From: Reichenbachiella carrageenanivorans | GTDB lineage: Bacteria > Bacteroidota > Bacteroidia > Cytophagales > Cyclobacteriaceae | Reading direction: 5' to 3' | Length of the DNA stretch: 64,000 nucleotides | Assembly: GCF_025639805.1 (NCBI RefSeq) | Contig: NZ_CP106735.1 | Span: 1,490,001 to 1,554,000, forward strand | Part shown: positions 2,742 through 56,434 of the stretch, in pieces | Layout: each line of letters starts with the position of its first letter | How positions within the stretch are numbered: position 1 is the first letter of the stretch | Notes under the pieces: model-generated | Told to the model about the DNA's origin: nothing | Database searches by the model: none | Seen by the model: only the letters and a program-made list of their open reading frames with translations | Translations under genes and position numbers: made by a program

Positions 2742-3740
2742 TCATTGATTGATCAGGCTTTCGGTATGGAATACCTCTTCGACTTCGTTGATAATAACAA
2801 GCGTGTCTTCGTAGGTGGGAGATTCTACCAATCGTGCTCTAAACGGTTTGAAACCAGGTATGCCACGGAAGTAGTTGGTGTAGTGTCGGCGCATTTCGAA
2901 GATTCCTTTTTTATCGCCTTTCCATTCTACAGAAAATTTCAAATGGCTTTTGACAGCATCCATTCGCTCTGATAGTGTAGGGGGGGCTAGTTCTTCGCCC
3001 GTTTTCATGTAGTGTTTGATCTGATTGAAAATCCAAGGATTTCCAATTGCTGCACGGCCGATCATGATGCCATCTACTCCATATAACTCTTTGTATTGTT
3101 TGGCCTTTTGGGGCGAATCAATATCTCCATTTCCAAAAATTGGGATGTGAATATCTGGGTGGTTTTTCACTTCGGCAATCGGATTCCAGTCGGCCTCGCC
3201 TTTGTACATCTGTTGTCTTGTGCGACCATGGATACTGAGGGCTTGGATGCCTACGTCTTGTAGCCTTTTAGCTACTTCTACTATGCGGATGGTACTCGTA
3301 TCCCAGCCTAGGCGTGTCTTCACGGTCACGGGTTTATTTACGCGCTTCACGATCTCCTCAGTCATTTTTTGCATCTTGGGAATGTCGAGGAGGATACCAG
3401 CACCAGCTCCTTTGCAAGCTACTTTTTTTACAGGGCAGCCATAGTTGATATCTACTAATTCTGGATTGGCTTCTTCTGCGATGGCTGCAGCTTCGCGCAT
3501 AGACTCTATTTTTTCACCAAATATCTGGATGCCAATAGGGCGTTCGTAGTCATAGATGTCGAGTTTTTGTATGCTTTTGGCAGCGTCGCGTATCAAGGCT
3601 TCGGACGAGATAAATTCCGTATACATCATGTCTGCACCATTTTCCTTGCACACCGCACGAAACGGTGGATCACTCACATCCTCCATAGGTGCCAGTAGCA
3701 GTGGAAAGTCTCCTAATTCTATATCGCCTATTTTTACCAT
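2742..3740 (-). CDS. dusB: tRNA-dihydrouridine synthase, DusB type
   Basis: A FMN-dependent TIM-barrel enzyme of 332 aa that reduces specific uridines in tRNA. The N-terminal LLAPMEDVSDPPFR, the active-site segment NYGCPVKK (catalytic Cys acting as proton donor), KTRLGWD, SIHGRTRQQMYKG and the phosphate-binding IPIFGNGDI are all in the expected order. The MEDVSD version of the N-terminal motif and the length match the DusB subfamily of Bacteroidota. It is transcribed on its own, divergent from the CPBP gene at 3822. Confidence 0.93.
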   Translation of the reverse strand: MVKIGDIELGDFPLLLAPMEDVSDPPFRAVCKENGADMMYTEFISSEALIRDAAKSIQKLDIYDYERPIGIQIFGEKIESMREAAAIAEEANPELVDINYGCPVKKVACKGAGAGILLDIPKMQKMTEEIVKRVNKPVTVKTRLGWDTSTIRIVEVAKRLQDVGIQALSIHGRTRQQMYKGEADWNPIAEVKNHPDIHIPIFGNGDIDSPQKAKQYKELYGVDGIMIGRAAIGNPWIFNQIKHYMKTGEELAPPTLSERMDAVKSHLKFSVEWKGDKKGIFEMRRHYTNYFRGIPGFKPFRARLVESPTYEDTLVIINEVEEVFHTESLINQ

Positions 3741-4944: not shown

Positions 4945-5764
4945 GTTTTCAGACTTGGCCAAAAGGCTGGTCACAGGGGTAATAGGTGCGTTCTTTGTTT
5001 TGTTTGCCATCGCTTATCACGAATATGGATTTTTCGTCGTCTTCTTACTCCTTTGTGTGCTCACCCAATGGGAATTTTACAAGCTGATCATTGCCAATGG
5101 AATTGTGCCGTTGCGGACATTTGGTACCATTATGGGAGTTATCCTTTTTACCATGATTTACTTAGTAGAAAAAGGAACTATTAGCTACGATGCTTTCTTT
5201 ATGATTTTGCCTTTTAGCTCCTGTATATTTTTCATCAAACTCTATAAAAAGGATGAAAAGAAGCCATTTACCAATATTGCATTTACCTTTCTGGGGATCA
5301 TATATGTAGCGCTGCCTTTTTCTCTGCTGAGCGTGGCAGCCTTTATTTTGGATGAATACAGTTACCAAATCATCATAGGGATATTCCTTATTTTGTGGGC
5401 TAGCGACACAGGGGCTTATTTTGCAGGTATTCAATTCGGAAGGAGGAAATTATTTGAACGCGTGTCTCCTAAAAAATCATGGGAAGGCAGTGTGGGAGGA
5501 GCCATCCTTTCTTTGGCATTTGCCGTAGGGCTTTCGTATTATTTCAAAGATCTAGCCTTGTGGCATTGGATTGTGATTTCAGTAATTACGGTTGTTACTG
5601 GTACGTACGGAGACCTAGTGGAATCTTTGTTCAAAAGGAGTATGGACATCAAGGATTCAGGACGAAAGCTACCAGGCCATGGAGGGTTTTTGGATAGATT
5701 TGACGGATTATTGTTATCCATTCCATTCATCATCATATTCTTGAAGTTTTTTGTACAAGAATGA
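4925..5764 (+). CDS. cdsA: Phosphatidate cytidylyltransferase
   Basis: An inner-membrane enzyme that makes CDP-diacylglycerol from phosphatidic acid and CTP, the branch point of phospholipid synthesis. The protein is 279 aa with about seven or eight membrane segments. The CDS signature is near the C-terminus: SLFKRSMDIKDSGRKLPGHG followed by GFLDRFDG, with its Lys-Asp and Asp-Arg-x-Asp residues. SPKKSWEG upstream is also characteristic. Phosphatidylserine decarboxylase lies two genes downstream, consistent with a phosphatidylethanolamine pathway cluster. The start ATG lies inside the preceding DUF2007 gene. Confidence 0.95.
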   Translation: MTSSSSKFSDLAKRLVTGVIGAFFVLFAIAYHEYGFFVVFLLLCVLTQWEFYKLIIANGIVPLRTFGTIMGVILFTMIYLVEKGTISYDAFFMILPFSSCIFFIKLYKKDEKKPFTNIAFTFLGIIYVALPFSLLSVAAFILDEYSYQIIIGIFLILWASDTGAYFAGIQFGRRKLFERVSPKKSWEGSVGGAILSLAFAVGLSYYFKDLALWHWIVISVITVVTGTYGDLVESLFKRSMDIKDSGRKLPGHGGFLDRFDGLLLSIPFIIIFLKFFVQE

Positions 5765-5806
5765 TCGAATATTAAGGGCATTTCCTGTTTTGATTGGATG
5801 AATGTG

Positions 5807-8751: not shown

Positions 8752-9312
8752 TTATTCCTGTTCCTCCCCTATTTCGTTTTCTTTCTGAACGAAATCTTTA
8801 ATTGTAGGGAGTTCGTTGAGGCTATTGATACTAAAGTAGTCGAGAAAATTTTGGCTTGTGCCGTAGATAATGGGTCTACCTACGGCATCAGATTTACCTT
8901 TGATTTCAATCAATTCTTTTTCTAGCAGTTTGTGTACGGCATAGTCGCAGTTTACACCGCGTATTTGCTCCATCTCTCCTTTAGTGATGGGTTGTCGGTA
9001 GGCAATGATCGACAGGGTTTCTAACGATGAATTCGAAAGTCTTTTCTTGGATTGTTGCTTGAGCAATATCCCAATACTGGCTTGATAAGCAGGCTTGGTT
9101 AGAAACTGAAATCCGCCTCCGCTTTTTACGGGCTCAAATGAGAACTCGTCTGCTTGGTATTTATCTTGTATCTTGACTATGGCTTCTTCTATATCTGTAA
9201 GCGGCACATCTGCTTCAAACATCTCAGTCAAGCATTCTTTGATTTCCTGATCTGTTATCGGCTTTTGCGAACAAAAAATGAGCGCTTCAATATGATTAGC
9301 CAGATAATCCAA
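8752..9312 (-). CDS. scpB: Segregation and condensation protein B
   Basis: A 186-aa subunit of the SMC-ScpAB condensin complex, forming the winged-helix dimer that binds ScpA. Recognisable features are the N-terminal IEALIFCSQKPIT, the central LSNSSLETLSIIAYRQPIT and MEQIRGVNCDYAVHKL, and the GRPIIYGTSQNFLDYF segment. The C-terminus is acidic. It begins directly after the stop of the DksA-like gene (no gap), and precedes an RluB-like gene, the common scpB-rluB order. Confidence 0.93.
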   Translation of the reverse strand: MDYLANHIEALIFCSQKPITDQEIKECLTEMFEADVPLTDIEEAIVKIQDKYQADEFSFEPVKSGGGFQFLTKPAYQASIGILLKQQSKKRLSNSSLETLSIIAYRQPITKGEMEQIRGVNCDYAVHKLLEKELIEIKGKSDAVGRPIIYGTSQNFLDYFSINSLNELPTIKDFVQKENEIGEEQE

Positions 9313-9699: not shown

Positions 9700-9885
9700 A
9701 ATTATAGCATTTTAATCCAAGGATAATTGGCGCAATCTAATTCAACGCAACTAAAAACAAAAGGAAAAATGCAGTCACCTTGAATAATTAATTATGCCTT
9801 AACGGGTTAGCTTAGTACAGGACTTTTAAACGTAATAACAGAGCAAAAAGTGTGTGTATTTGTTTCCTTGACGAAGGGTTTTTGT

Positions 9886-13693: not shown

Positions 13694-14336
13694 GCTGTAC
13701 GTTTTTTTCGAAGTATTTACACATCAGTGAGATCTCACATTTTTCACACTTTGGCTTTCTGGCGAGGCAGATGTACCTGCCATGCAAGATGAGCCAATGG
13801 TGTGCTTTGGGGATGTGTTCTTCTGGGATGAACTTGACTAATTGCTTTTCTACCTCTAGCGGTGTTTTGGCTGTTTGAGGGACTAGACCCAAGCGTTTGG
13901 ATACACGGAAGACGTGTGTGTCTACTGCCATCGTGGGCTGATTGAAGACTACTGAGGCTATTACATTGGCAGTTTTTCGGCCTACTCCAGGGAGTTTTTG
14001 TAGTTCTTTGATGTCTGCTGGTACTTCTGAATTGAAGTCTTCTACTAACATTTTAGCCATGCCTAGTAAGTGCTTGGTTTTGTTGTTGGGGTAGGAAATG
14101 GATCTGATATAGGGAAATAGCTCGTCGAAGTTAGAGGCTGCAAGTGCTTCTGGCGTAGGGAACGATTCGAAGATAGCTGGCGTCACCATATTCACGCGCT
14201 TGTCTGTGCATTGAGCACTAAGCGCTACAGCTACTATCAGCTGAAAGGGGTTTTCATAGTGAAGCTCAGTTTCTGCTTCTGGGTTGTGCCGACTGAAATA
14301 ATCTATAAAAAACTGATACCGCTCTTTTTTATTCAT
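13668..14336 (-). CDS. nth: Endonuclease III (DNA glycosylase/AP lyase)
   Basis: Removes oxidised pyrimidines from DNA and nicks the abasic site in base excision repair. The helix-hairpin-helix LPGVGRKTAN carries the catalytic Lys121, and Asp139 is in AVDTHVFR. The C-terminal [4Fe-4S] cluster motif is complete, Cys190-x6-Cys197-x2-Cys200-x5-Cys206. Length (222 aa) is normal. It converges on the 501-aa gene with a 26-bp overlap and lies 47 bp from the small anti-sigma-like gene on the same strand. Confidence 0.96.
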   Translation of the reverse strand: MNKKERYQFFIDYFSRHNPEAETELHYENPFQLIVAVALSAQCTDKRVNMVTPAIFESFPTPEALAASNFDELFPYIRSISYPNNKTKHLLGMAKMLVEDFNSEVPADIKELQKLPGVGRKTANVIASVVFNQPTMAVDTHVFRVSKRLGLVPQTAKTPLEVEKQLVKFIPEEHIPKAHHWLILHGRYICLARKPKCEKCEISLMCKYFEKNVQPKQQSSSS

Positions 14337-14382
14337 AGTTCGAATCTACAAAAAGGAGTGGCAATTCTTGTAAAGTCTTAGT

Positions 14383-14613
14383 TTAAATCCCAGCTGGATA
14401 ATTGGATGAAAAGTTGAAAATTTTCTCTAAGGTAAAATCCGTGGGGTCAAACAGCAACCCGTCTAAAATGGAGCTATCCAATTTCAAGTCAAAAAATTTG
14501 GCTTCGAGCTCAGCATCGCACACTAATGCGTTTTCAATACTTGTTTTTTCATTTTCCGTAGACTCTCCATATAGATAGCGGAGCAAATCATTTTCGGTAA
14601 AAGTGGTGATCAT
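14383..14613 (-). CDS. Small putative anti-sigma factor
   Basis: A 76-aa acidic protein without a membrane segment. The N-terminal half (FTENDLLRYLYGESTENEKTSIENAL) resembles the start of anti-sigma helical domains, in which a short helix pair clamps the sigma factor. Its ATG lies inside the end of the ECF sigma gene (26-bp overlap), so the two are made together. In Bacteroidota, such short soluble proteins commonly follow this sigma factor. The assignment is from context plus the N-terminal pattern, and no binding residue can be confirmed. Confidence 0.6.
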   Translation of the reverse strand: MITTFTENDLLRYLYGESTENEKTSIENALVCDAELEAKFFDLKLDSSILDGLLFDPTDFTLEKIFNFSSNYPAGI

Positions 14614-15187
14614 AAGCGATGTTCAATTTTTGCATTTTCTTACGCAAATTGATCAAGGCATATCTCATCCGACCTAAAGCTGTATTGATACTGACGTTAG
14701 TGGACTCTGCAATGTCTTGAAAACTCATTTGCATATAGTGTCTCATTATTAAAACTTCCTTTTGTACTTCGGGTAATTCCTGCACAAGTTTTTTTAATAA
14801 CGCATTAGTATCTTGTTTGATTTGGATAGACTCTACGGAGTCTTCAGCAAAAGCGAGCGTATTGAATACACCACTTCCATCTTCCATTACAATAGTTGGG
14901 TAACGTTTGTCTTTCCTAAAAAAATCAATCGCCAAGTTGTGCGCAATGCGCAATACCCATGGTAGAAATTTGCCTTCTTCATTGTATTTGCCTGACTTCA
15001 CGGTTTTCACCACTTTGATAAATGTTTCCTGAAGAAGATCTTCAGCCACATATTTATCTTTCACGATCAAGTAAATAGTAGTGAACACACGAGACTTATG
15101 TCGAGCCACCAACTCTTCAAACGCCTCTTCGCTACCGTTTTTGTAATGTGATACTAATAAGCTATCACTAACACCAAAATTATTCAT
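14588..15187 (-). CDS. ECF-type RNA polymerase sigma factor
   Basis: A 199-aa sigma-70 family protein of the extracytoplasmic-function group. Region 2 (about residues 25-95) includes AFEELVARHKSRVF, the EDLLQETFIKVV segment and the WVLRIAHNLAIDFFRK stretch that melts the -10. Region 4 (about 130-190) includes LPEVQKEVLIMRHY and an HTH with FQDIAESTNVSINTALGRMRYAL for -35 recognition. Downstream, overlapping, is a 76-aa putative anti-sigma gene. Which promoters it controls cannot be read here; no membrane anti-sigma is nearby, suggesting a cytoplasmic signal. Confidence 0.92.
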   Translation of the reverse strand: MNNFGVSDSLLVSHYKNGSEEAFEELVARHKSRVFTTIYLIVKDKYVAEDLLQETFIKVVKTVKSGKYNEEGKFLPWVLRIAHNLAIDFFRKDKRYPTIVMEDGSGVFNTLAFAEDSVESIQIKQDTNALLKKLVQELPEVQKEVLIMRHYMQMSFQDIAESTNVSINTALGRMRYALINLRKKMQKLNIAYDHHFYRK

Positions 15188-15455
15188 CTGTTTAACACTT
15201 TTGTTTAACGTACTTGTCTAGTCCATATTGTCATGTTTGGTTAAAGAATTGAGTTTTATTTTTTAGAAAGGCACTATCTCAAATGTACTAAAACCGAGAC
15301 AATTTGCAAAAAATTAAATCTTATTAAAGTTCTATTTATTATTTATATCCTTCTATAAAATTCGATCAATGTCTTAGTACATTCGATTAATAAGACAAGA
15401 AAGGAACTGTAATACCCCTAAATGGGTTAGGGTCAATATAAATTAGAGGACAAAT

Positions 15456-15737
15456 ATGAAAGCAATTTGGAATGGACATGTATTGGCGGAAAGTGCGGAT
15501 ACACTTGTAGTAGAAAACAATCACTATTTCCCTCCTTCGGCTATTAAGCAGGAGTTTTTTAAAGCTAGCCCTACACATACCCACTGCCCATGGAAAGGGG
15601 AGGCCAGCTACTATACCATAGATGCAGGAGGTAAGCAGAATATAGATGCCGCTTGGTATTATCCATCAGCTTCTGATTTAGCTAAAAATATAGAAGGATA
15701 TGTGGCCTTTTGGAAGGGTGTGGAGGTAGTGAAGTAA
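15456..15737 (+). CDS. DUF427 domain protein
   Basis: A 93-aa single-domain protein of the DUF427 family, a small beta-rich fold. Family phrases are MKAIWNGHVLAES, the HCPWKGEASYY strand containing the conserved Cys-Pro-x-Lys-Gly, and AAWYYPSASDLAKNI. No enzymatic activity is established for the family. The preceding 268 bp contain two short inverted repeats (GTCTTA/TAAGAC at 15371-15396 and CCCTAA/TTAGGG at 15416-15432), which could form 5' leader hairpins. It is followed after about 35 bp by the helicase promoter, so it is probably transcribed alone. Confidence 0.88.
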   Translation: MKAIWNGHVLAESADTLVVENNHYFPPSAIKQEFFKASPTHTHCPWKGEASYYTIDAGGKQNIDAAWYYPSASDLAKNIEGYVAFWKGVEVVK

Positions 15738-15772
15738 GCGGGGAAATAGATGGTGGTGTGCATGGGCCTGTC

Positions 15773-15780
15773 TATCTTTG
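15773..15780 (+). promoter_or_regulatory. -7 box (TATCTTTG) before the DEAD-box helicase
   Basis: An exact TAnnTTTG match ends 27 bp before the GTG at 15808. It overlaps the alternative TTG start at 15778, which therefore cannot be in the mRNA; this supports the GTG start. No clear TTG -33 element is seen at the usual distance. Confidence 0.5.
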
Positions 15781-15807
15781 TTGCTTCACATTTTTAAACA
15801 GTACATC

Positions 15808-16920
15808 GTGTCTACATTTTCAGCATTAGGTATTTCAAAGTCACTCATCAAAGGGTTGAACGAATTAGGAATTAAAACGCCTACCGAAATCCAAGAAAGA
15901 GCTATCCCTGTTTTAGTACAGGGGCAGACCGATTTTGTGGGACAAGCACAGACTGGAACAGGTAAGACGGCAGCCTTTGGTTTGCCACTTTTAGAACTGG
16001 TAGACCCTAAGGTGAGTCACATTCAGGGGCTGATTTTGGCACCTACTCGAGAATTGTGTCAGCAGATTGCCAAGCAGCTATTTAAATTCACCAAGTATTC
16101 TGACAAGGTTTTTACTGAAGCGGTATTTGGTGGTGCCAAAATAGACGAGCAGATTAGCAAATTGCAACGGCCTACTCAAATTCTAGTGGCTACTCCTGGT
16201 CGGTTGGTGGATTTGCTGGAGCGCAAAGCAGTATCGCTCGAACATGTTCAGACTGTAGTGCTCGACGAAGCAGACGAGATGTTGAGTATGGGTTTTAAGC
16301 AGGACCTCAACAAAATATTGGATCAAACAGCCTCCACTAGTAATAAGTGGCTTTTTTCAGCAACAATGCCCGAGGGGGTGAAAAAGATGATTCGCACTTA
16401 CCTTTCTCAAAACGCAGAGCGTGTAGAACTGAAAAAGAAAGGTGCTAATGAAAATATTTCTTATCAATATGTGGTTTGTGACCCTCTAGACAAGTTGAAA
16501 GTTTTATTGTCTTTTCTTAGATCACAAAAAGAAAACCGAGGATTGATCTTTTGTAATACCAAAGCAGCAGTACAAACACTGAGTAAGCAACTTCAGGCCA
16601 AAAATATCGCAGCGGATGCGCTTGAAGGAGACATGAAGCAGAAGGAACGTGACAAAGTGATGCGTGCTTTTAAAAATGAAAGTTTGCAAATTTTAGTGTC
16701 GACAGATGTAGCAGCTCGTGGTATTGATGTAAAAGGGCTGTCGTATGTGGTGCACTATCAAGTGCCTGAGCATTTGGAGTATTTTACCCACCGAAGCGGC
16801 CGTACAGGTCGAGCAGGGTTGGATGGGCTTTCGCTCTGTCTAGTCAACGAAGCAGAGGTGAAACGTATCCACTTTTATGAGCAGAATTTGAAAATCAAAA
16901 TGACGCGGATCAAGGATTGA
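15808..16920 (+). CDS. DEAD-box ATP-dependent RNA helicase
   Basis: A 370-aa core helicase. Q motif region GIKTPTEIQERAIP, motif I AQTGTGKTAA, motif Ia PTRELCQQ, motif II VLDEADEML, motif III SATMP, and motif VI HRSGRTGRAG are all present in order over the two RecA domains. There is almost no C-terminal extension, so it lacks the basic tail of CsdA/DeaD and looks like a minimal RhlE/RhlB-type helicase acting in RNA folding or decay. GTG at 15808 (MSTFSALGISKSL) is preferred to a TTG 30 bp upstream. Its stop overlaps the start of the cupin gene. Confidence 0.93.
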   Translation: MSTFSALGISKSLIKGLNELGIKTPTEIQERAIPVLVQGQTDFVGQAQTGTGKTAAFGLPLLELVDPKVSHIQGLILAPTRELCQQIAKQLFKFTKYSDKVFTEAVFGGAKIDEQISKLQRPTQILVATPGRLVDLLERKAVSLEHVQTVVLDEADEMLSMGFKQDLNKILDQTASTSNKWLFSATMPEGVKKMIRTYLSQNAERVELKKKGANENISYQYVVCDPLDKLKVLLSFLRSQKENRGLIFCNTKAAVQTLSKQLQAKNIAADALEGDMKQKERDKVMRAFKNESLQILVSTDVAARGIDVKGLSYVVHYQVPEHLEYFTHRSGRTGRAGLDGLSLCLVNEAEVKRIHFYEQNLKIKMTRIKD

Positions 16921-17414
16921 TGAAGCCGTCAGCTCAATATTGGATTGACCACCTAAGGTTATTACCTCATCCAGAGGGAGGATATTTTAAAGAAACGTAT
17001 CGCGCTGAAACAGAAGTTTCTCTACCTCAGTTTGCAGGAATTCGCCAAGTCTCTACAGGTATTTATTTTTTGCTAACACAAGGAAATTTCTCCGCCTTTC
17101 ATAGAATCCAGTCCGATGAAATGTGGCATTTCTATGCTGGAAATTCGCTCAGTATTTTTGTTATTTACCCTAATGGGGTTTTGAGTGAAATACGGCTAGG
17201 CTTAGATGTGGAAAATGGAGAAGTACCACAGGCCGTAGTGCCAGCCAAATGCTGGTTTGCCTCCCGTGTACATGAGCAGGGAGACTATGCCCTTGTAGGG
17301 TGTACGGTATCTCCAGGCTTTGATTTTGCAGATTTTGAAATGGCTGACCGGCAGGCACTTGCTGAGTCCTATCCCAGTCATTCTACCTTAATTACAACCC
17401 TCACTCATTCCTAG
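16920..17414 (+). CDS. Cupin domain protein, DUF985 (Cupin_5) family
   Basis: A 164-aa single beta-barrel protein. Conserved Cupin_5 features are LLPHPEGGYFKETYR near the N-terminus, the IYFLLTQGNFSAFHRIQSDE segment with its His and Glu, and DYALVGCTVSPGFDFADFE near the end. Yeast YML079w and Shewanella relatives have this fold with unknown substrate, possibly a sugar or nucleotide. The ATG shares its first base with the helicase TGA, so it is translationally coupled to it. A strong terminator-like hairpin lies about 200 bp downstream. Confidence 0.88.
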   Translation: MKPSAQYWIDHLRLLPHPEGGYFKETYRAETEVSLPQFAGIRQVSTGIYFLLTQGNFSAFHRIQSDEMWHFYAGNSLSIFVIYPNGVLSEIRLGLDVENGEVPQAVVPAKCWFASRVHEQGDYALVGCTVSPGFDFADFEMADRQALAESYPSHSTLITTLTHS

Positions 17415-50644: not shown

Positions 50645-51838
50645 ATGTCCCAATCACTCATAGATATCCTCCGCACGCCAGAGGCGCGCACTTTCATTCA
50701 GACACATCTGAGCGAAGATCCAGTGGCGCTGGTACTACAGGCGCGGCGATATCCAGATTTGCCCATTCGGGAAATAGCCGCTCAAATCCAATCCAGAAAA
50801 AAGGCCGAAAAGAAGTTGCCCGAGTGGTTTGCACAGGAGGGTATCCTGTTTCCTCACGGCGTATCGATGGAGCAGTGCTCGTCGGAAGACACCGCCAAGT
50901 ACAAGGCTACTTTGGTGAGTGGCAAGACGGTGACGGATCTAACAGGCGGATTTGGCATAGACCTATATTACCTATCGCAGCATTTTGCCGAAGCACACTA
51001 CATTGAGCGCTCCGAGGAGCTGGTTGCGCTGGTCAAGTACAATTATGAACAATTGGGGTGCGATCAGGTGTCGTTTTTCAACACCACGGCTGAGGACTAT
51101 CTGGCCGCTGATCAGCAGCCCGCCGATTTGTATTTCATCGATCCGGCTCGTCGAGATGAGTCCAACCAAAAGGTGTTTGAGATCGGCGACTGCACACCAG
51201 ATTTGCGTTTGATCATTCCCATTTTGCTCCAGCGAAAAGCTGAAATATTGATCAAAATGTCGCCGATGCTAGATATTCGTCAGGCATTGGATGCCCTGCC
51301 TCATGTCGAAGAAGTGCATGTGGTGTCGGTCAGGAATGAGTGTAAGGAATTGCTGTTTCGTATTGTGCCTAGTCATAGCGGTGAGGCCAAGCGCATCACG
51401 GTCAACTTCGCTACAGAAGGCCCAATGCAGTTCGTGTTTGACGCAAGCGACGAGCAAGAGCAGCCCACATTTAGTGAGCCACTGACTTACCTTTACGAAC
51501 CCAACGCATCGATCATGAAAGCTGGCGGCTTCAATGCCGTCGCCAGGGCCTTTGGCGTAAGCAAGCTGCAGCGCAATTCGCATCTATATACCTCGACAGA
51601 GTTAGTGGAAGATTTCCCGGGTCGTGTATTTCGCATACAGGCGCAGACTGTGGTCAACAAGAAGAAACTAAAGCCCTTTTTGCCGCAAGGCAAAGCCAAC
51701 ATAGCGGCAAGAAACTACCCCATGTCCGTCAAAGAAATTCGAAACAAAACGGGTATCAAAGAAGGTGGTGAGGTGTATGTGTTTGCCACTACGTTGATGG
51801 ACGGGCGTTTGGCGGCGTTGGTCTGTGGCAAGGTGTAG
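50645..51838 (+). CDS. THUMP-like, class I SAM-dependent methyltransferase
   Basis: A 397-aa protein. An N-terminal THUMP-like/helical part (about 1-90) precedes a Rossmann methyltransferase core: VTDLTGGFGIDLYYLS is motif I (SAM binding, about residues 98-112), YIERSEELVALVKYN motif II, and YFIDPARRDE motif IV (about 158-167). DPARR resembles the DPPY-type catalytic motif but with Ala-Arg-Arg. The C-terminal part (about 260-397) is a further THUMP-like/OB domain. RNA modification is likely but the target is unknown. Its last 14 codons (ending LMDGRLAALVCGKV) are repeated downstream at 54070. Confidence 0.85.
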   Translation: MSQSLIDILRTPEARTFIQTHLSEDPVALVLQARRYPDLPIREIAAQIQSRKKAEKKLPEWFAQEGILFPHGVSMEQCSSEDTAKYKATLVSGKTVTDLTGGFGIDLYYLSQHFAEAHYIERSEELVALVKYNYEQLGCDQVSFFNTTAEDYLAADQQPADLYFIDPARRDESNQKVFEIGDCTPDLRLIIPILLQRKAEILIKMSPMLDIRQALDALPHVEEVHVVSVRNECKELLFRIVPSHSGEAKRITVNFATEGPMQFVFDASDEQEQPTFSEPLTYLYEPNASIMKAGGFNAVARAFGVSKLQRNSHLYTSTELVEDFPGRVFRIQAQTVVNKKKLKPFLPQGKANIAARNYPMSVKEIRNKTGIKEGGEVYVFATTLMDGRLAALVCGKV

Positions 51839-51840
51839 AC
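51797..51840 (+). repeat. 44-bp direct repeat, copy 1 (3' end of the methyltransferase gene)
   Basis: From ATGGACGGG to GTAGAC, including the stop codon. It matches 54070-54113 in 43 of 44 positions (G/A at the ninth base). The two copies are 2273 bp apart and bracket the BspA-type gene. See findings. Confidence 0.95.
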
Positions 51841-52191
51841 TCTATAGCTTTTTTATTCCCGTATCTTTGGATCAATGAGGCTTCATCTTCATTGTAAACA
51901 TTCGCTTTACTTTTCCTTCTTAGCATAATCACTACATCCAATCTTATCTCCCCATGTACAAATGCACCAATATCCATATTATGCGTCTGTCTACTAGCCT
52001 CTAGAAATTTATACGCTTGTTTGCTTGTGATAATGGATGGGTATGATTTTTTTTGGATAAAATATGAAATAATTAAGTTTATATGCCTTCTAATTCCTCT
52101 AGCCTGTGCTTTTTGTTTTGCATGTGAGGTGAGGGAACCAAGATTTTCTTTTTAATTGAAATAAGTACTTTGTAATCTTTTAAAATCAACT
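51841..52191. other. Intergenic region with a stray promoter box and a gene remnant on the minus strand
   Basis: 351 bp. An exact -7 box TATCTTTG (51862-51869) is followed 5 bp later by ATG, but the frame ends after 17 codons. On the minus strand an open frame runs from about 52152 to 51789 without stop; the part 51850-51977 (MDIGAFVHGEIRLDVVIMLR and following) has a coding-like look but no good start for the upstream part. It may be a decayed gene. No promoter for the BspA-type gene was recognised. Confidence 0.35.
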
Positions 52192-53979
52192 ATGAAAAAC
52201 CTATTACTCGCCATGAGTGCATGGCTCATGCTACATACTGCCCAGGCGCAGCTGGATCCTTCGGCTTTTGTTACCACCTGGCGAACCACCGGAGACAATG
52301 AGTCCTTTACCATACCCGCCCTCGAAGACACTAATAATGATGGGACCGTAGACGAAAATGATGTGGCCTTTAGTTATAGCGTAGACTGGGGCGATGGTAG
52401 TACAGATACTAATGTCTATACCGGGCCAGCTTCCCATACCTATAGCGTAGCAGGAGATTATCAAATCTCGATCACTGGAACTTTCCCAAGGATTAGGTGT
52501 AAGGCTGTTGGCGAACAAATTCAATCCATAGACCAATGGGGGGACATAAAATGGGAAAACATGTACCAAGCTTTTTTTTCATGTACCAACCTAATATATG
52601 CGGCCACCGATGCACCTGACTTGTCGAATGTTACTGACCTGGGGAGTATGTTTGGCTATTCTACTAAATTCAACGGTGATCTGAGTAACTGGGACGTGAG
52701 CGGTGTGACTGATATGTCAGGGATGTTTGCGGGCACTTCGTTCAACAGTGATTTGAACACTTGGGACGTGAGTAGTGTGACGGATATGGGTCATATGTTT
52801 GTTGACGCATCTTCATTCAAAAGTGATGTGAGTAGCTGGGATGTAAGTAGTGTGACTACTATGATTTATATGTTTTATAACGCTACTTCATTCAATGGTG
52901 ATGTGAGTAGCTGGGATGTGAGTAGTGTGACTAAAATGGATTTTATGTTTTATAACGCTACTTCATTCAATAGTGATTTGAATAATTGGGATGTGAGTAA
53001 AGTGACTAGCATGGGTGAAATGTTTTCTAAGGCATCTTCATTCAATGGTGATTTGAGTAGTTGGGATTTGAGTGCTGTTAATAACCTATGGAAAATGTTT
53101 TATAATGCTAGTTTGTCTATGACTAACTATGATAAGCTGCTCGAAGGCTGGAGTACGCTAGACGAGGGGGAAACTAAGGTGCCTACCTATATCGATTTAG
53201 GCACAGTCAGTTCAACTTATTGTCAGGGAGAGGCTGCTAGGACACGATTGATCGATGAATATGGTTGGTCGATTGCTGGGGACGAGAAGGCTTGTCCACC
53301 TGCAGCAGATTTAGCTGCCCTGCCAGAGTTGGTGGCATGTGATGAAATGGCTGAGCTTACAGCCCCTACCGCCGATAATGGAACCATTACCGGTCAGACC
53401 ACCACTACATTCCCGATCACCACTCTGGGAGAAAACACGATACAATGGGTGTTTACATCAGCCAAAGGAAAGGAGTCGGTACAGACACAGATCGTATGGA
53501 TAGGAGACTATGTAGTCCCCGATACCCATGAACTGGCTGATGTGTCGGGAGTGTGTTCAGTCGCATCCTTGGTCCTGCCGACTGCTACCAGTGGGTGTGG
53601 TGGTGAGATTACAGGTGTTCACGATGCTACATTGCCCATCACCGAGACCACGACCGTGACATGGACTTATACCAGTGAGTCAGACGAAAGTGCCACACAA
53701 ACTCAGAAAGTGGTGATTGCCCCTTGCGTGGGCAGTGTGACAAGTGTAGCGCCAGATCAGACCGCAAGCGCCATCTACCCCAATCCTGCGACAAACAGTT
53801 TTCAGTTGTCGGGGCTCCCAGCCGATGAGCTCACGCTCGTAGATATGAATGGCAAAGTCCTTAGTAGGTTTGAGTCGCCACAGACATCTTACTACATTGG
53901 CTCGCTCGAAGCAGGGATCTATACGGTGATGATCCGTTTTGGCCAGCAGGTACGCTATACCAAGCTACTCAAAAGATAA
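52192..53979 (+). CDS. BspA-family repeat surface protein with PKD domain and T9SS tail
   Basis: A 595-aa secreted protein: signal peptide about 1-19 (ending AQAQ), a PKD-like domain (about 58-105; SVDWGDGST, HTYSVAGDYQISI), six DUF285/BspA-type repeats of about 25 residues (about 160-308; core FNGDLSSWDVSSVTDM..MF), then two HYR/Ig-like domains (about 380-520) and a type A T9SS sorting tail from about 523 (AIYPNPATNSFQLSGLPADE to YTKLLKR). BspA-type repeats mediate binding to host or matrix proteins in other species. The gene sits inside a segment flanked by 44-bp direct repeats, so it may have arrived by insertion. Confidence 0.92.
   Translation: MKNLLLAMSAWLMLHTAQAQLDPSAFVTTWRTTGDNESFTIPALEDTNNDGTVDENDVAFSYSVDWGDGSTDTNVYTGPASHTYSVAGDYQISITGTFPRIRCKAVGEQIQSIDQWGDIKWENMYQAFFSCTNLIYAATDAPDLSNVTDLGSMFGYSTKFNGDLSNWDVSGVTDMSGMFAGTSFNSDLNTWDVSSVTDMGHMFVDASSFKSDVSSWDVSSVTTMIYMFYNATSFNGDVSSWDVSSVTKMDFMFYNATSFNSDLNNWDVSKVTSMGEMFSKASSFNGDLSSWDLSAVNNLWKMFYNASLSMTNYDKLLEGWSTLDEGETKVPTYIDLGTVSSTYCQGEAARTRLIDEYGWSIAGDEKACPPAADLAALPELVACDEMAELTAPTADNGTITGQTTTTFPITTLGENTIQWVFTSAKGKESVQTQIVWIGDYVVPDTHELADVSGVCSVASLVLPTATSGCGGEITGVHDATLPITETTTVTWTYTSESDESATQTQKVVIAPCVGSVTSVAPDQTASAIYPNPATNSFQLSGLPADELTLVDMNGKVLSRFESPQTSYYIGSLEAGIYTVMIRFGQQVRYTKLLKR
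52669..53115 (+). repeat. Tandem 72/75-bp repeats encoding the BspA-type units
   Basis: Units start at 52669, 52741, 52816, 52891, 52966 and 53041, each with TTCAA(C/T/A)(G/A)GTGAT. The first is 72 bp, the others 75 bp. Units 3 to 5 are nearly identical at the nucleotide level (shared TGGGATGT(A/G)AGTAGTGTGACT), suggesting recent duplication and a chance of length variation. Confidence 0.9.
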
Positions 53980-54010
53980 CAGGAGCCTACTTCGCTACAT
54001 AATAACAATA

Positions 54011-54046
54011 AAAACAAGGGGGCAGTTTCGACTGCTTTCTTGTTTT
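54011..54046 (+). terminator. Intrinsic terminator after the BspA-type gene
   Basis: AAAACAAGGGGGCAGT (54011-54026) pairs with ACTGCTTTCTTGTTTT (54031-54046), a 16-bp stem including three G-U pairs, closed by the tetraloop TTCG. It lies 32 bp after the stop codon. Confidence 0.8.
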
Positions 54047-54069
54047 GTACCATGAGCCTTTATCCGCTA

Positions 54070-54113
54070 ATGGACGGACGTTTGGCGGCGTTGGTCTGTG
54101 GCAAGGTGTAGAC
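54070..54113 (+). repeat. 44-bp direct repeat, copy 2
   Basis: Copy of the methyltransferase 3' end (43/44 identical to 51797-51840). It is in frame with an ATG at 54052, giving a 19-codon frame (MSLYPLMDGRLAALVCGKV) that ends at the copied stop (54109-54111). It lies between the terminator of the BspA-type gene and the promoter of the exonuclease gene. Confidence 0.95.
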
Positions 54114-54179
54114 AGGCTTCCTTGGCGGAATAGAAAAGAGAAACCTTTTGATACTTGTGGTAAGGTCATTATTAATCCC

Positions 54180-54212
54180 TTGGTGAGTTTTTGAAAAGCA
54201 TCTATATCTTTG
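54180..54212 (+). promoter_or_regulatory. Promoter of the exonuclease/GIY-YIG gene (TTG-N22-TATCTTTG)
   Basis: TTG (54180-54182), 22 bp, then TATCTTTG (54205-54212). The ATG at 54219 follows after 6 bp, so the mRNA may be leaderless. This also excludes a TTG start at 54210. Confidence 0.7.
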
Positions 54213-54218
54213 GCGCAT

Positions 54219-55592
54219 ATGCCTCAGGAATATGCCATCATAGATATAGAAACCACTGGTAGGAGTGGTGCAGGACAGAAAGTTACAGAGATCGCCATCA
54301 TCATTCACGATGGCAAAAAAGTAATTGACGAATATCAAACTTTGGTCAACCCTGAGACCTCCATCCCCTACTCCATCACGCAGCTTACGGGCATTCACGA
54401 CGAGATGGTGATGCACTCACCCAAGTTTTTTGAAATTGCAAAAAAGGTGTATAAAATGACCGAAGGGCGCATTTTTGTTGCCCACAATGTGGCGTTCGAT
54501 TATGGCGTGCTTCGAGGTGAGTTTGCTAGTCTGGGTGGAACATTTGAGCGAAAGCAGCTCTGTACCGTCAAGCTGGCCAGAAAGCTCCTGCCCGGCCATG
54601 GCTCCTATAGTCTGGGCAAGTTATGCACCGATCTAGGGATTTCTATCCATGGCCGCCATCGCGCTTTTGGAGATGCCGAAGCCACGGTGAAATTGCTGGA
54701 GATTATGTTTGGCAAAGCGGAGGATCTGGGCATGGAAGACCTGAGTTTAGAAAGTGTGGCCAACATACCTAAAATTCCACCGCAGCTCGACCGAGACACC
54801 TATCGCAGTCTGCCCCAAGCCACAGGTGTCTATTACATTTATGACGCTTCTCAAACCTTAGTGTATATAGGTAAGGCCAAAAATATCCGCCAACGTATGT
54901 TGTCGCATTTCAACGACAAAAGCCGAAAAGAAAAGAGCTTGTTTGAAGCCACAGCTGATATACGCTATGTACTGACAGGTAGCGAACTTATCGCACTATT
55001 GATGGAGTCTGATGAGATCAAAAAACACCAACCCAAATTTAACCGTGCTCTAAAGCAAACCAAAGCGACATATGGCTTGTACGCCTATGAAAACCAGAAG
55101 GGTGTACTCCAGCTTAGCGTGGCCAAACTTCAGGCGGGCAGTCTAGCGTTAAATACTTTTGTGGGACTGGCACGAGCCACCAAGTTTCTAGAGCAGGCCG
55201 TAGCGTCTTATCGGCTCTGTCCCAAATACTGTGGATTAGAAAAGACCCAAGACAGTTGCTTCGCTTCCAAAATCAAGAAGTGTAATGGCGTGTGTGCAGA
55301 CAGAGAATCAGTGGTAGATTATAACGTCAGAGTAGAAGAACTGATCGACGATCTGATACTCAAAAGGGAAGATTTCTATATTGAAGAACCTGGCCGTACC
55401 GCCGACGAAATTGGTATTGTACAGATTAAACAAGGCGAGTACCAAGGTTATGGCTATGTGTCGAGCTCAGATCAAAATACGGGCTACGAAGGGTATGAAA
55501 ATTGTATCGAAAAAAAGGATAATGACTCAGATGCTTCGAAGATTATATTGGGTTATTTAAAAAAACAAAGAGAACATAATGCGTCGAGATGA
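54219..55592 (+). CDS. DnaQ-like 3'-5' exonuclease fused to GIY-YIG nuclease
   Basis: A 457-aa fusion. The N-terminal DEDDh exonuclease domain (about residues 1-175) has its ligands in AIIDIETTG (motif I), FVAHNVAFDYGVLRG (motif II) and HRAFGDAEATVKLL (motif III, His and Asp). A GIY-YIG domain follows (about 200-285; ATGVYYIYDASQTLVYIGKAKNIRQRM). A Cys-containing C-terminal part (about 330-365, CPKYCGLEKTQDSC...C) resembles the UvrC family's Cys-rich region. The overall order (epsilon-like plus UvrC-like) recalls Cho-type and fused DNA-repair nucleases; a role in nucleotide excision repair is an inference. It follows the 44-bp repeat. Confidence 0.9.
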   Translation: MPQEYAIIDIETTGRSGAGQKVTEIAIIIHDGKKVIDEYQTLVNPETSIPYSITQLTGIHDEMVMHSPKFFEIAKKVYKMTEGRIFVAHNVAFDYGVLRGEFASLGGTFERKQLCTVKLARKLLPGHGSYSLGKLCTDLGISIHGRHRAFGDAEATVKLLEIMFGKAEDLGMEDLSLESVANIPKIPPQLDRDTYRSLPQATGVYYIYDASQTLVYIGKAKNIRQRMLSHFNDKSRKEKSLFEATADIRYVLTGSELIALLMESDEIKKHQPKFNRALKQTKATYGLYAYENQKGVLQLSVAKLQAGSLALNTFVGLARATKFLEQAVASYRLCPKYCGLEKTQDSCFASKIKKCNGVCADRESVVDYNVRVEELIDDLILKREDFYIEEPGRTADEIGIVQIKQGEYQGYGYVSSSDQNTGYEGYENCIEKKDNDSDASKIILGYLKKQREHNASR

Positions 55593-55669: not shown

Positions 55670-56434
55670 CTATTCTACCAATTTTAGAAACTGTGCTTGA
55701 AGCCTTTCATCTCCCCCCAGTTGTTCTATTACTGCTTGCTGTAGGTATTTAGGAATGGTTTGCTGCGTGGCTAGCTTTTGTGTAATGTCTTTGATCATCA
55801 TGGCGAGGTCGTCGCTGTAGAGATCTTTGGCTTTTACGTCGGAGATGAAAGACTCCATATTGGCCGAAGGCATTACTTCTACAGGCTTTGATATTTTAGG
55901 ACTGTTTTTTTGCTGGTCGTCTATACAGGTATCGAAGACTTCGAATATTTTTTTTAATTCCGTCTTTTTGAGTTCGCCAGATTCTATCTGATCACTCACA
56001 GCAGGACAGTCGGAGAAGTACTCACCCAATCGTTTTTTGGACACTAGGTTGCTAAATTTGAACTGCTCTCCTTGCCAGTTGACCAATAGCCTTAGCGAAT
56101 AATTTGAACCACTGTTGCTATTGTCTACATAGAGATATTCAGAGAAGTATTTGCTTTTGAAAACGACCTTTACAAACTGATAGCGTTCGTCTATTTTCAA
56201 TACTTCAAACTCTTCGTCTTTGGCTAAATGTACCAATCGTACTTGGTAGCATTTATAGCTATTTTTTTCTTTGCCTATTTTCGTTCGGACTTCATCCACC
56301 CTGTACTGTCCTCCATGATCTAAAAATATTTTGCCACGGATGGTGTCCATTTGGGCAGTCACGAGCCACTGATCTTGTCCATGGGCCAAAGTGAATATTA
56401 GGGATAGAGCAGCTGATAAGAAAATAGTACGCAT
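55670..56434 (-). CDS. Unrecognised exported protein (254 aa)
   Basis: No family is recognised. ATG at 56434 gives a signal peptide (MRTIFLSAALSLIFTLAHGQ, cut near GQDQ), whereas a start at 56518 would put 28 polar residues before it. The mature part is mixed alpha/beta with charged segments (YKCYQVRLVHLAKDEEFEVL; IVKVVFKSKYFSEYLYVDN), a Cys pair (DCPAVS and DTCIDD), and a helical C-terminus. It is probably periplasmic or outer-membrane associated. It stands alone, divergent from a histidine kinase gene. Confidence 0.7.
   Translation of the reverse strand: MRTIFLSAALSLIFTLAHGQDQWLVTAQMDTIRGKIFLDHGGQYRVDEVRTKIGKEKNSYKCYQVRLVHLAKDEEFEVLKIDERYQFVKVVFKSKYFSEYLYVDNSNSGSNYSLRLLVNWQGEQFKFSNLVSKKRLGEYFSDCPAVSDQIESGELKKTELKKIFEVFDTCIDDQQKNSPKISKPVEVMPSANMESFISDVKAKDLYSDDLAMMIKDITQKLATQQTIPKYLQQAVIEQLGGDERLQAQFLKLVE

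What the first reader, a model, noticed from the sequence alone, without database searches (positions are those of the whole stretch)
51797..54113. 2.27-kb segment with a BspA-type gene bracketed by 44-bp direct repeats of a gene 3' end
The last 14 codons, the stop and two more bases of the methyltransferase gene (51797-51840) recur at 54070-54113 (43/44 identical). Between them lie only intergenic DNA and a T9SS/BspA-type surface gene with its own terminator. The codons just before the repeats differ synonymously (TTG versus CTA for Leu, then GGG versus GGA for Gly), which suggests copy 2 or copy 1 came from a diverged allele and not a simple local duplication. Duplicated gene 3' ends are the usual scar of elements that insert there and restore the gene, yet no recombinase is present. 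The segment may be a small mobilisable surface-protein cassette, mobilised in trans, or a recombination scar.
Basis: partly seen in the sequence, partly recalled or inferred. Interest (0 to 1): 0.7.

Follow-up and report, generated by a model that had tools for sequence, protein, structure and literature searches.

The report
Scar joining two gene-neighbourhood variants
A surface-protein gene in this bacterium sits between two copies of the tail end of its neighbour gene, most likely the scar of an ordinary recombination event that joined two strain versions of the same spot, not a jumping cassette.

Summary
The last 13 codons, stop and two bases of a methyltransferase (MTase) gene (51797-51840) recur at 54070-54113 (43/44) and nowhere else in the 4.81-Mb genome. 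Between them lie one DUF285/PARCEL-type T9SS surface gene and intergenic DNA, with no recombinase recognised. In five of seven genus mates (Reichenbachiella) the MTase adjoins a convergent gene, a distant homologue of the one at 55670 here. In the window that slot holds the surface gene plus an exonuclease gene; the two nearest mates hold other genes. No mate duplicates the MTase end. All three differences between the copies are synonymous, so both were probably once working gene ends. In 924 kb of this genome (566 genes) no other displaced gene end was found. Best explanation: a one-sided homologous (homology-facilitated illegitimate) recombination scar merging two versions of a variable slot. 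A cassette mobilised in trans is not supported but not excluded; no close strain was available to show parental sites.

The parts
50645..51838 (+). Methyltransferase gene with PG_1098 ferredoxin-like and THUMP-like domains (class I SAM-dependent type recalled); the gene whose 3' end is duplicated
   Evidence: Pfam PF22013, PF18096; matches in 50 of 59 genomes searched, own genome included
51797..51840 (+). Copy 1 of the 44-bp repeat, in frame as the gene's own 3' end (similarity extends to 51792)
51841..52191 (.). AT-rich intergenic stretch (32% GC); only chance-level matches in the other seven genus genomes (best E 0.035)
51843..52151 (-). 103-codon open frame without recognisable relatives; possible gene remnant, unexplained
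52192..53979 (+). 595-aa BspA-type surface protein: DUF285/PARCEL repeats in 75-bp units plus T9SS C-terminal sorting domain; the cargo
   Evidence: best match outside itself in 59 genomes is the genome's own 1538-aa gene near 3.707 Mb
53980..54069 (.). Intergenic DNA downstream of the surface gene with a small hairpin (54022-54035); ends at the inferred non-homologous join
   Evidence: join position inferred from the end of similarity
54070..54113 (+). Copy 2: displaced MTase gene 3' end, alone in intergenic DNA (similarity extends to 54065)
54187..55565 (+). Block alignable to the exonuclease locus of genus mate G001 (75% nt); includes about 30 bp upstream of the start codon
54219..55592 (+). 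DnaQ-like 3'-5' exonuclease + GIY-YIG nuclease gene; second newcomer in the slot
   Evidence: no full-length match in G003, G004, G005; in other neighbourhoods in G001, G002, G006, G007
55670..56434 (-). Convergent neighbour; a homologue (23-36% identity) directly follows the MTase in G001, G002, G004, G006 and G007

Best explanation
The 44-bp pair marks the join between two alternative versions of one variable gene slot. One version was MTase + surface gene, the other MTase + exonuclease. Donor DNA from a close relative paired with the recipient by ordinary homology on one side (in the MTase gene, or in the genes beyond the exonuclease). On the other side it was joined without homology, a few dozen bases inside the other version's MTase gene. 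The gene stays intact, ending in one version's tail followed by its cargo, and the other version's truncated tail is left stranded in front of its own downstream gene. This is the outcome expected of homology-facilitated illegitimate (one-sided) recombination. Shown: the two tail copies, their synonymous differences, the variable slot in the genus, no recombinase recognised between the copies, and parallel cases in other genomes. Inferred: the mechanism, the donor, which copy is native, and the direction of transfer.
For: Slot variable: MTase next to a homologue of the 55670 gene in 5 of 7 genus mates; different genes between in G003, G005 and here. All 3 differences between copies are synonymous (chance about 0.015, or 0.054 if only transitions are considered), so both tails were probably under selection as gene ends. 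Both copies share residues not seen in the seven mates at those positions (R after LMDG; G in CGKV), so the donor was probably very close. Exonuclease and surface gene have different nearest relatives. Parallels: L200, a Bacteroidaceae MAG, MTase 160 bp duplicated at 95% with a four-gene operon (sigma factor and DUF4252 protein identified) between; L162, the only other of 80 loci with this operon beside the MTase, has no second tail and shares the last codons and stop of L200's intact gene, not of the stranded copy, as expected if gene end and cargo arrived together. L160, pnuC tail about 142 bp (91.5%), Fic gene between. L291, decayed MTase fragment about 290 bp past the gene end with a 92-aa frame between. 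Repeat lengths vary, unlike a fixed att core. Process described in PMC2884548 (passages) and proposed for T6SS immunity arrays in PMC5361080 (passages).
Against: No strain with either parental version was found, so the fusion is not demonstrated. The 3 differences cluster in the first 16 of 49 bases, leaving 33 identical bases, which would also suit an att core. The non-homologous junction cannot be checked for microhomology without the donor. Competence or conjugation in this species was not tested. In L200 the stranded copy is, over most of its length, slightly closer to L162 (132/158) than the intact gene end is (134/164); only the last codons favour the intact end. The L291 fragment lacks the gene's last roughly 37 bases, so it is a weaker parallel.
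Confidence: 0.6

Rival explanations
1. A small integrative element (or its relic) inserted site-specifically at the MTase 3' end. It carries an attP that mimics the gene tail and restores the gene; the tyrosine recombinase acts in trans or has been lost.
For: Gene 3' end duplicated and frame restored; 33-bp identical core with flanking mismatches; 13 Phage_integrase matches elsewhere in the genome; MTase ends also duplicated in L200, L214 and (fragment) L291.
Against: Only one gene and no recombinase recognised in 2.27 kb; repeat only twice in the genome; no second displaced gene end in 924 kb; no inverted-repeat core better than shuffles (155 and 218 of 500 shuffles reach it); parallel cases have repeats of about 44, 90, 142 and 160 bp; no genus mate has the duplicated end or, in the listed matches, a surface gene of more than 59% identity over any stretch.
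Confidence: 0.17
2. Relic of a local tandem duplication: a segment from the MTase tail through the surface gene was duplicated and the second copy then deleted down to 44 bp.
For: Simple tandem duplications of this gene end do occur: L214 has one of about 309-bp period.
Against: Sequence after copy 2 does not resemble that after copy 1; needs two events; purely synonymous differences are unlikely in a neutral copy (about 0.015-0.054).
Confidence: 0.1
3. Another history, such as insertion-sequence traffic since lost, or a Campbell-type single crossover of a circular molecule carrying a diverged MTase tail.
For: A single crossover of a circle gives the same arrangement; 44 bp is above the roughly 30 bp that PMC2884548 quotes as the threshold for RecA-dependent exchange in E. 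coli (passage); the slot has turned over repeatedly.
Against: No inverted repeats bracket the segment; no mobile-element gene recognised among the window's slot genes; 44 bp is still short homology.
Confidence: 0.13

Closest known systems
Homology-facilitated illegitimate recombination (HFIR): PMC2884548 and PMC5361080 (passages read), PMC3240628 (abstract start in a listing)
   Same: Intact gene with new cargo behind it, old 3' end displaced downstream, no recombinase, donor tail diverged from recipient tail
   Different: Here inferred from one genome plus parallels in other species; donor and recipient versions not seen; the target is a methyltransferase gene and the cargo a surface protein, not an effector-immunity module
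Genomic islands integrated at gene 3' ends by tyrosine integrases (e.g. SGI1 at trmE, PMC8409611; Islander, PMC4383910; abstract starts in a listing only)
   Same: Target gene regenerated and a displaced gene fragment marks the far end
   Different: No integrase recognised, single cargo gene, repeat found only at this site, displaced fragment lengths differ between parallel cases
PARCEL / DUF285 repeat proteins (PMC2996958, abstract and passages)
   Same: Surface gene has 75-bp repeats of this family (TIGR02167); the paper suggests horizontal spread and, in some taxa, ORFs associated with mobile elements
   Different: The repeats lie inside the gene and have nothing to do with the 44-bp flanking repeat; dyad symmetry in the window's six units is weak (8-12 of 14-16 positions, no control run)

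Membership tests
HFIR / one-sided recombination scar | Intact gene plus truncated second copy of its end flanking foreign cargo, no recombinase | tested here: met
   the gene between has DUF285 and a sorting domain only
HFIR / one-sided recombination scar | The two gene ends are diverged alleles | tested here: met
   3 of 3 differences synonymous; supportive, small number
HFIR / one-sided recombination scar | Parental versions exist in relatives | tested here: inconclusive
   Slot variable in the genus but no conspecific or close strain available
HFIR / one-sided recombination scar | Short microhomology at the non-homologous junction | not testable with these tools
   Needs the donor sequence
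Integrase-mediated genomic island | Encodes or neighbours a site-specific recombinase | tested here: not met
   None recognised between the repeats; nearest PF00589 match at 1.683 Mb, locus at 1.542 Mb
Integrase-mediated genomic island | Attachment core with inverted arms | tested here: not met
   Best imperfect inverted repeat reached by 155 and 218 of 500 shuffles
Integrase-mediated genomic island | Empty site or same element elsewhere | tested here: inconclusive
   44-bp core only twice in own genome; no strain to show an empty site
Insertion sequence / transposon | Terminal inverted repeats bracketing the segment | tested here: not met
   None of 8 inverted-repeat pairs of at least 14 nt in 51000-55000 lies at the segment's two ends; target duplication not tested
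PARCEL/DUF285 T9SS surface protein | DUF285 / TIGR02167 repeats and T9SS sorting domain above cut-off | tested here: met

The most novel reading that the evidence does not exclude
The 3' end of this Bacteroidota-wide methyltransferase gene is a recurrent entry point where single genes or operons are inserted and the old gene end displaced, by an unrecognised machinery acting in trans. Displaced or duplicated MTase ends were seen in four genomes (this one, L200, L291 as a decayed fragment, and L214 as a tandem duplication) among about 180 loci examined (and the window).
Probability: 0.07. Interest if true: 0.6.

Novelty: new member of a known kind. Interest (0 to 1): 0.25.

Why it matters
It is a worked example of how an accessory surface gene can enter a conserved gene neighbourhood in Bacteroidota without recognisable mobile-element machinery. 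It also shows that a duplicated gene 3' end alone is not proof of an integrative element. The signature (intact gene, cargo, stranded gene end) can be scanned for and may help count one-sided recombination events.

Tried and rejected
Mobile-cassette system in this genome: scanned gene ends in 45 pieces of own DNA (window plus 44 fetched stretches, 924 kb, 566 genes of at least 100 aa), dropping copies that lie inside another open frame; only the window MTase scored. A later, looser scan gave four further hits, in own-genome stretches L225, L237 and L248 (two); all are ends of neighbouring paralogous genes, not stranded ends.

MTase end as hotspot: in the first scan (1183 genes of at least 150 aa, 110 loci, 20 rows returned) I dropped rows inside other frames (neighbouring related genes) and inverted rows (L143, one in L214), which left L200, L214, L160 and the window. 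Taken as 3 of 99 MTase against 1 of 1084 other genes, Fisher p is 0.002; without the window 0.02; without window and tandem case 0.16 (the denominators 99 and 1084 are my own split, not a count by the call). In the uniform scan 2 of 150 MTase against 4 of 1548 other genes, p 0.09, without the window 0.37. That scan missed L291 (its locus starts inside the gene) and L160 (probably hidden by an overlapping 102-aa frame), and the 4 others are the paralogue ends above. Not established. One search also listed weak or inverted matches in L154, L202 and L217, not counted. One search also listed one 37-bp match of another gene's end in L263 (600 genes), not examined.

Surface gene as recent copy of the 3.7-Mb paralogue: DNA similarity mostly 64-77% (one 34-bp match at 97%) and confined to the coding part; rejected.

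Third tail copy behind the exonuclease: none above shuffles. Minus-strand 103-codon frame: 15 of 2000 simulated sequences reach that length, but no family or homologue; the E 0.005-0.008 matches in two genus mates align at 25% to a long frame that looks like an aminotransferase (name recalled; frame printed for one of them) and look like chance. G016 contig forks: only a 141-bp assembly overlap, not usable.
Full report
OBSERVATION. The repeat exists at the stated coordinates (43/44; 46/49 in the longer register). A search of the whole genome (one contig, 4,812,735 bp) with the flanking 71 bp finds only these two places, and the best other ungapped match in the window is 25/44. Copy 1 is the MTase gene's own end (13 sense codons, TAG, AC). 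Copy 2 stands alone in intergenic DNA between the surface gene and the exonuclease gene. The copies differ at three sites: TTG/CTA (two changes) and GGG/GGA. Both read LMDGRLAALVCGKV followed by a stop.

GENES. The MTase has PG_1098 ferredoxin-like and THUMP-like domains. The cargo is a 595-aa protein with DUF285 and TIGR02167 PARCEL repeats and a T9SS sorting domain, whose units recur every 72-75 bp. The next gene is a DnaQ-type exonuclease with a GIY-YIG domain. The genus is Reichenbachiella: the R. agariperforans DSM 26134 contig has the same length and coordinates as the contig of handle G007, which is listed as same genus.

THE SLOT IN RELATIVES. In G001, G002, G004, G006 and G007 the MTase is followed directly by a convergent gene that is a homologue (23-36% identity) of the one at 55670-56434 here. 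In the two nearest mates, G003 and G005 (69-70% MTase identity), two genes lie between (a 1243/1248-aa gene in both, plus one further gene in each). In the window the surface gene and the exonuclease gene lie between. No mate has a duplicated MTase end. The exonuclease has no full-length match in G003, G004 or G005 (best E 1e-14 to 1e-16). The window's copy is 83% identical to that of G001, which lies in another neighbourhood there, and the nucleotide alignment to it starts about 30 bp upstream of the start codon. The exonuclease is therefore probably itself a newcomer in this slot. The surface gene's best match in 59 genomes is the same genome's 1538-aa gene near 3.707 Mb (47-62% protein identity in pieces; mostly 64-77% DNA identity, coding part only). 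A search of about 5.8 billion proteins, limited to proteins of similar length, listed 120 of 6431 hits, none above 56% identity, that one over about half the protein.

WHAT THE TWO COPIES SAY. If copy 2 were a neutral duplicate, the chance that three changes would all be synonymous is about 0.015, or 0.054 counting transitions only. Three differences are few, but they suit two alleles that were both working gene ends. Both copies carry residues that the seven mates lack at the same positions, so the source was probably a very close relative.

PARALLELS. Of 98 MTase loci from other genomes (100 loci given, two without a match; one species present twice), L200 and L214 had a same-strand duplicate of the gene end of 150 bp or more. 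L214 is a tandem duplication with a period of about 309 bp. In L200 (a Bacteroidaceae MAG) 160 bp are duplicated 3,176 bp apart at 95% identity, with four genes on the opposite strand between; a sigma factor and a DUF4252 protein were identified, one further gene had no Pfam match and one was not searched. L162, the only other of the 80 loci with this operon beside the MTase, has no stranded tail and shares with L200's intact gene, not with the stranded copy, the last codons and stop. That supports gene end and cargo arriving together and the old end being displaced; over the rest of the tail the stranded copy is slightly closer to L162 (132/158 against 134/164), so the support rests on the last codons. 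Of 80 further MTase loci one, L291, has a decayed MTase fragment of about 90 bp starting 290 bp past the gene end, without the gene's last bases, and a 92-aa frame between. Among other genes, a pnuC gene (name recalled) in L160, a Dysgonamonadaceae MAG, shows the same pattern with a Fic gene between.

NOT A CASSETTE FAMILY HERE. I took 40 stretches of 20 kb around T9SS sorting-domain matches, four further stretches and the window: 924 kb, 566 genes. The window MTase was the only gene whose end recurs in its stretch outside another open frame. Thirteen Phage_integrase matches exist in the genome, the nearest about 140 kb away. No inverted-repeat core is evident, and the only tRNA or Rfam match in the window is a tRNA-Ala at 22.6 kb.

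MECHANISM. The simplest account is one-sided homologous recombination between two versions of a variable slot. PMC2884548 (passages read) describes how homology on one side of incoming DNA may start integration while the other end is joined illegitimately, and argues that illegitimate recombination explains much small-scale diversity. PMC5361080 (passages read) proposes it for displaced immunity genes and a shifted-back effector 3' end in Vibrio cholerae, and notes that it is rare compared with ordinary homologous recombination. PMC3240628 (title and abstract start in the listing only) reports it at low efficiency in E. coli conjugation. Direction and donor are open: copy 2 may be the recipient's displaced end, or the donor's end brought in with the exonuclease. 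The cargo class has been suggested to spread horizontally (PMC2996958, abstract and passages).

LIMITS. No closely related strain is in the collections searched, so the empty or parental sites could not be shown. The hotspot statistics are weak once the window itself is removed. I made four paper searches that were answered, none of them for this locus itself, so I make no claim that it is unpublished.

Noticed in passing
L122 (G000:C1:3697001-3717000) at 410-451, 3656-3697, 9731-9772: A 42-bp intergenic repeat, 83-98% identical, containing two ATTGCAAC boxes 20 bp apart, lies upstream of a sensor/response-regulator pair and of two large T9SS genes, one of them DUF285; the exact two-box motif was not seen in the 43 other fetched own-genome stretches or the window. 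It may be a binding site for that regulator.
   Followed up: partly
L248 (G000:C1:2590001-2610000) at 14096-17050: Array of related genes (one searched: ankyrin repeats) alternating with two similar 140-aa frames (one searched: GH-E, HNH/EndoVII nuclease domain), which looks like stranded polymorphic-toxin ends with immunity genes.
   Followed up: partly
window 51843-52151 (-): 103-codon stop-free frame in a 32% GC intergenic stretch, reached by 15 of 2000 simulated sequences, no relatives found; possible remnant of a lost gene.
   Followed up: partly
L237 (G000:C1:1705001-1725000) at about 5750-5795 and 9097-9142: Two consecutive genes with similar T9SS-type ends share about the last 30 bp of coding sequence and the start of the downstream DNA although the sequence just upstream differs, suggesting local conversion of gene ends.
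   Followed up: no
L160 13702-15736: pnuC gene (name recalled) with a Fic-family gene behind it and a stranded about 142-bp end of it beyond that: same scar type with different cargo.
   Followed up: partly
G000:C1:4735912-4737259 and 4743537-4744884: Two pairs of tyrosine recombinase matches with identical scores, 7.6 kb apart: probably a duplicated recombinase pair.
   Followed up: no
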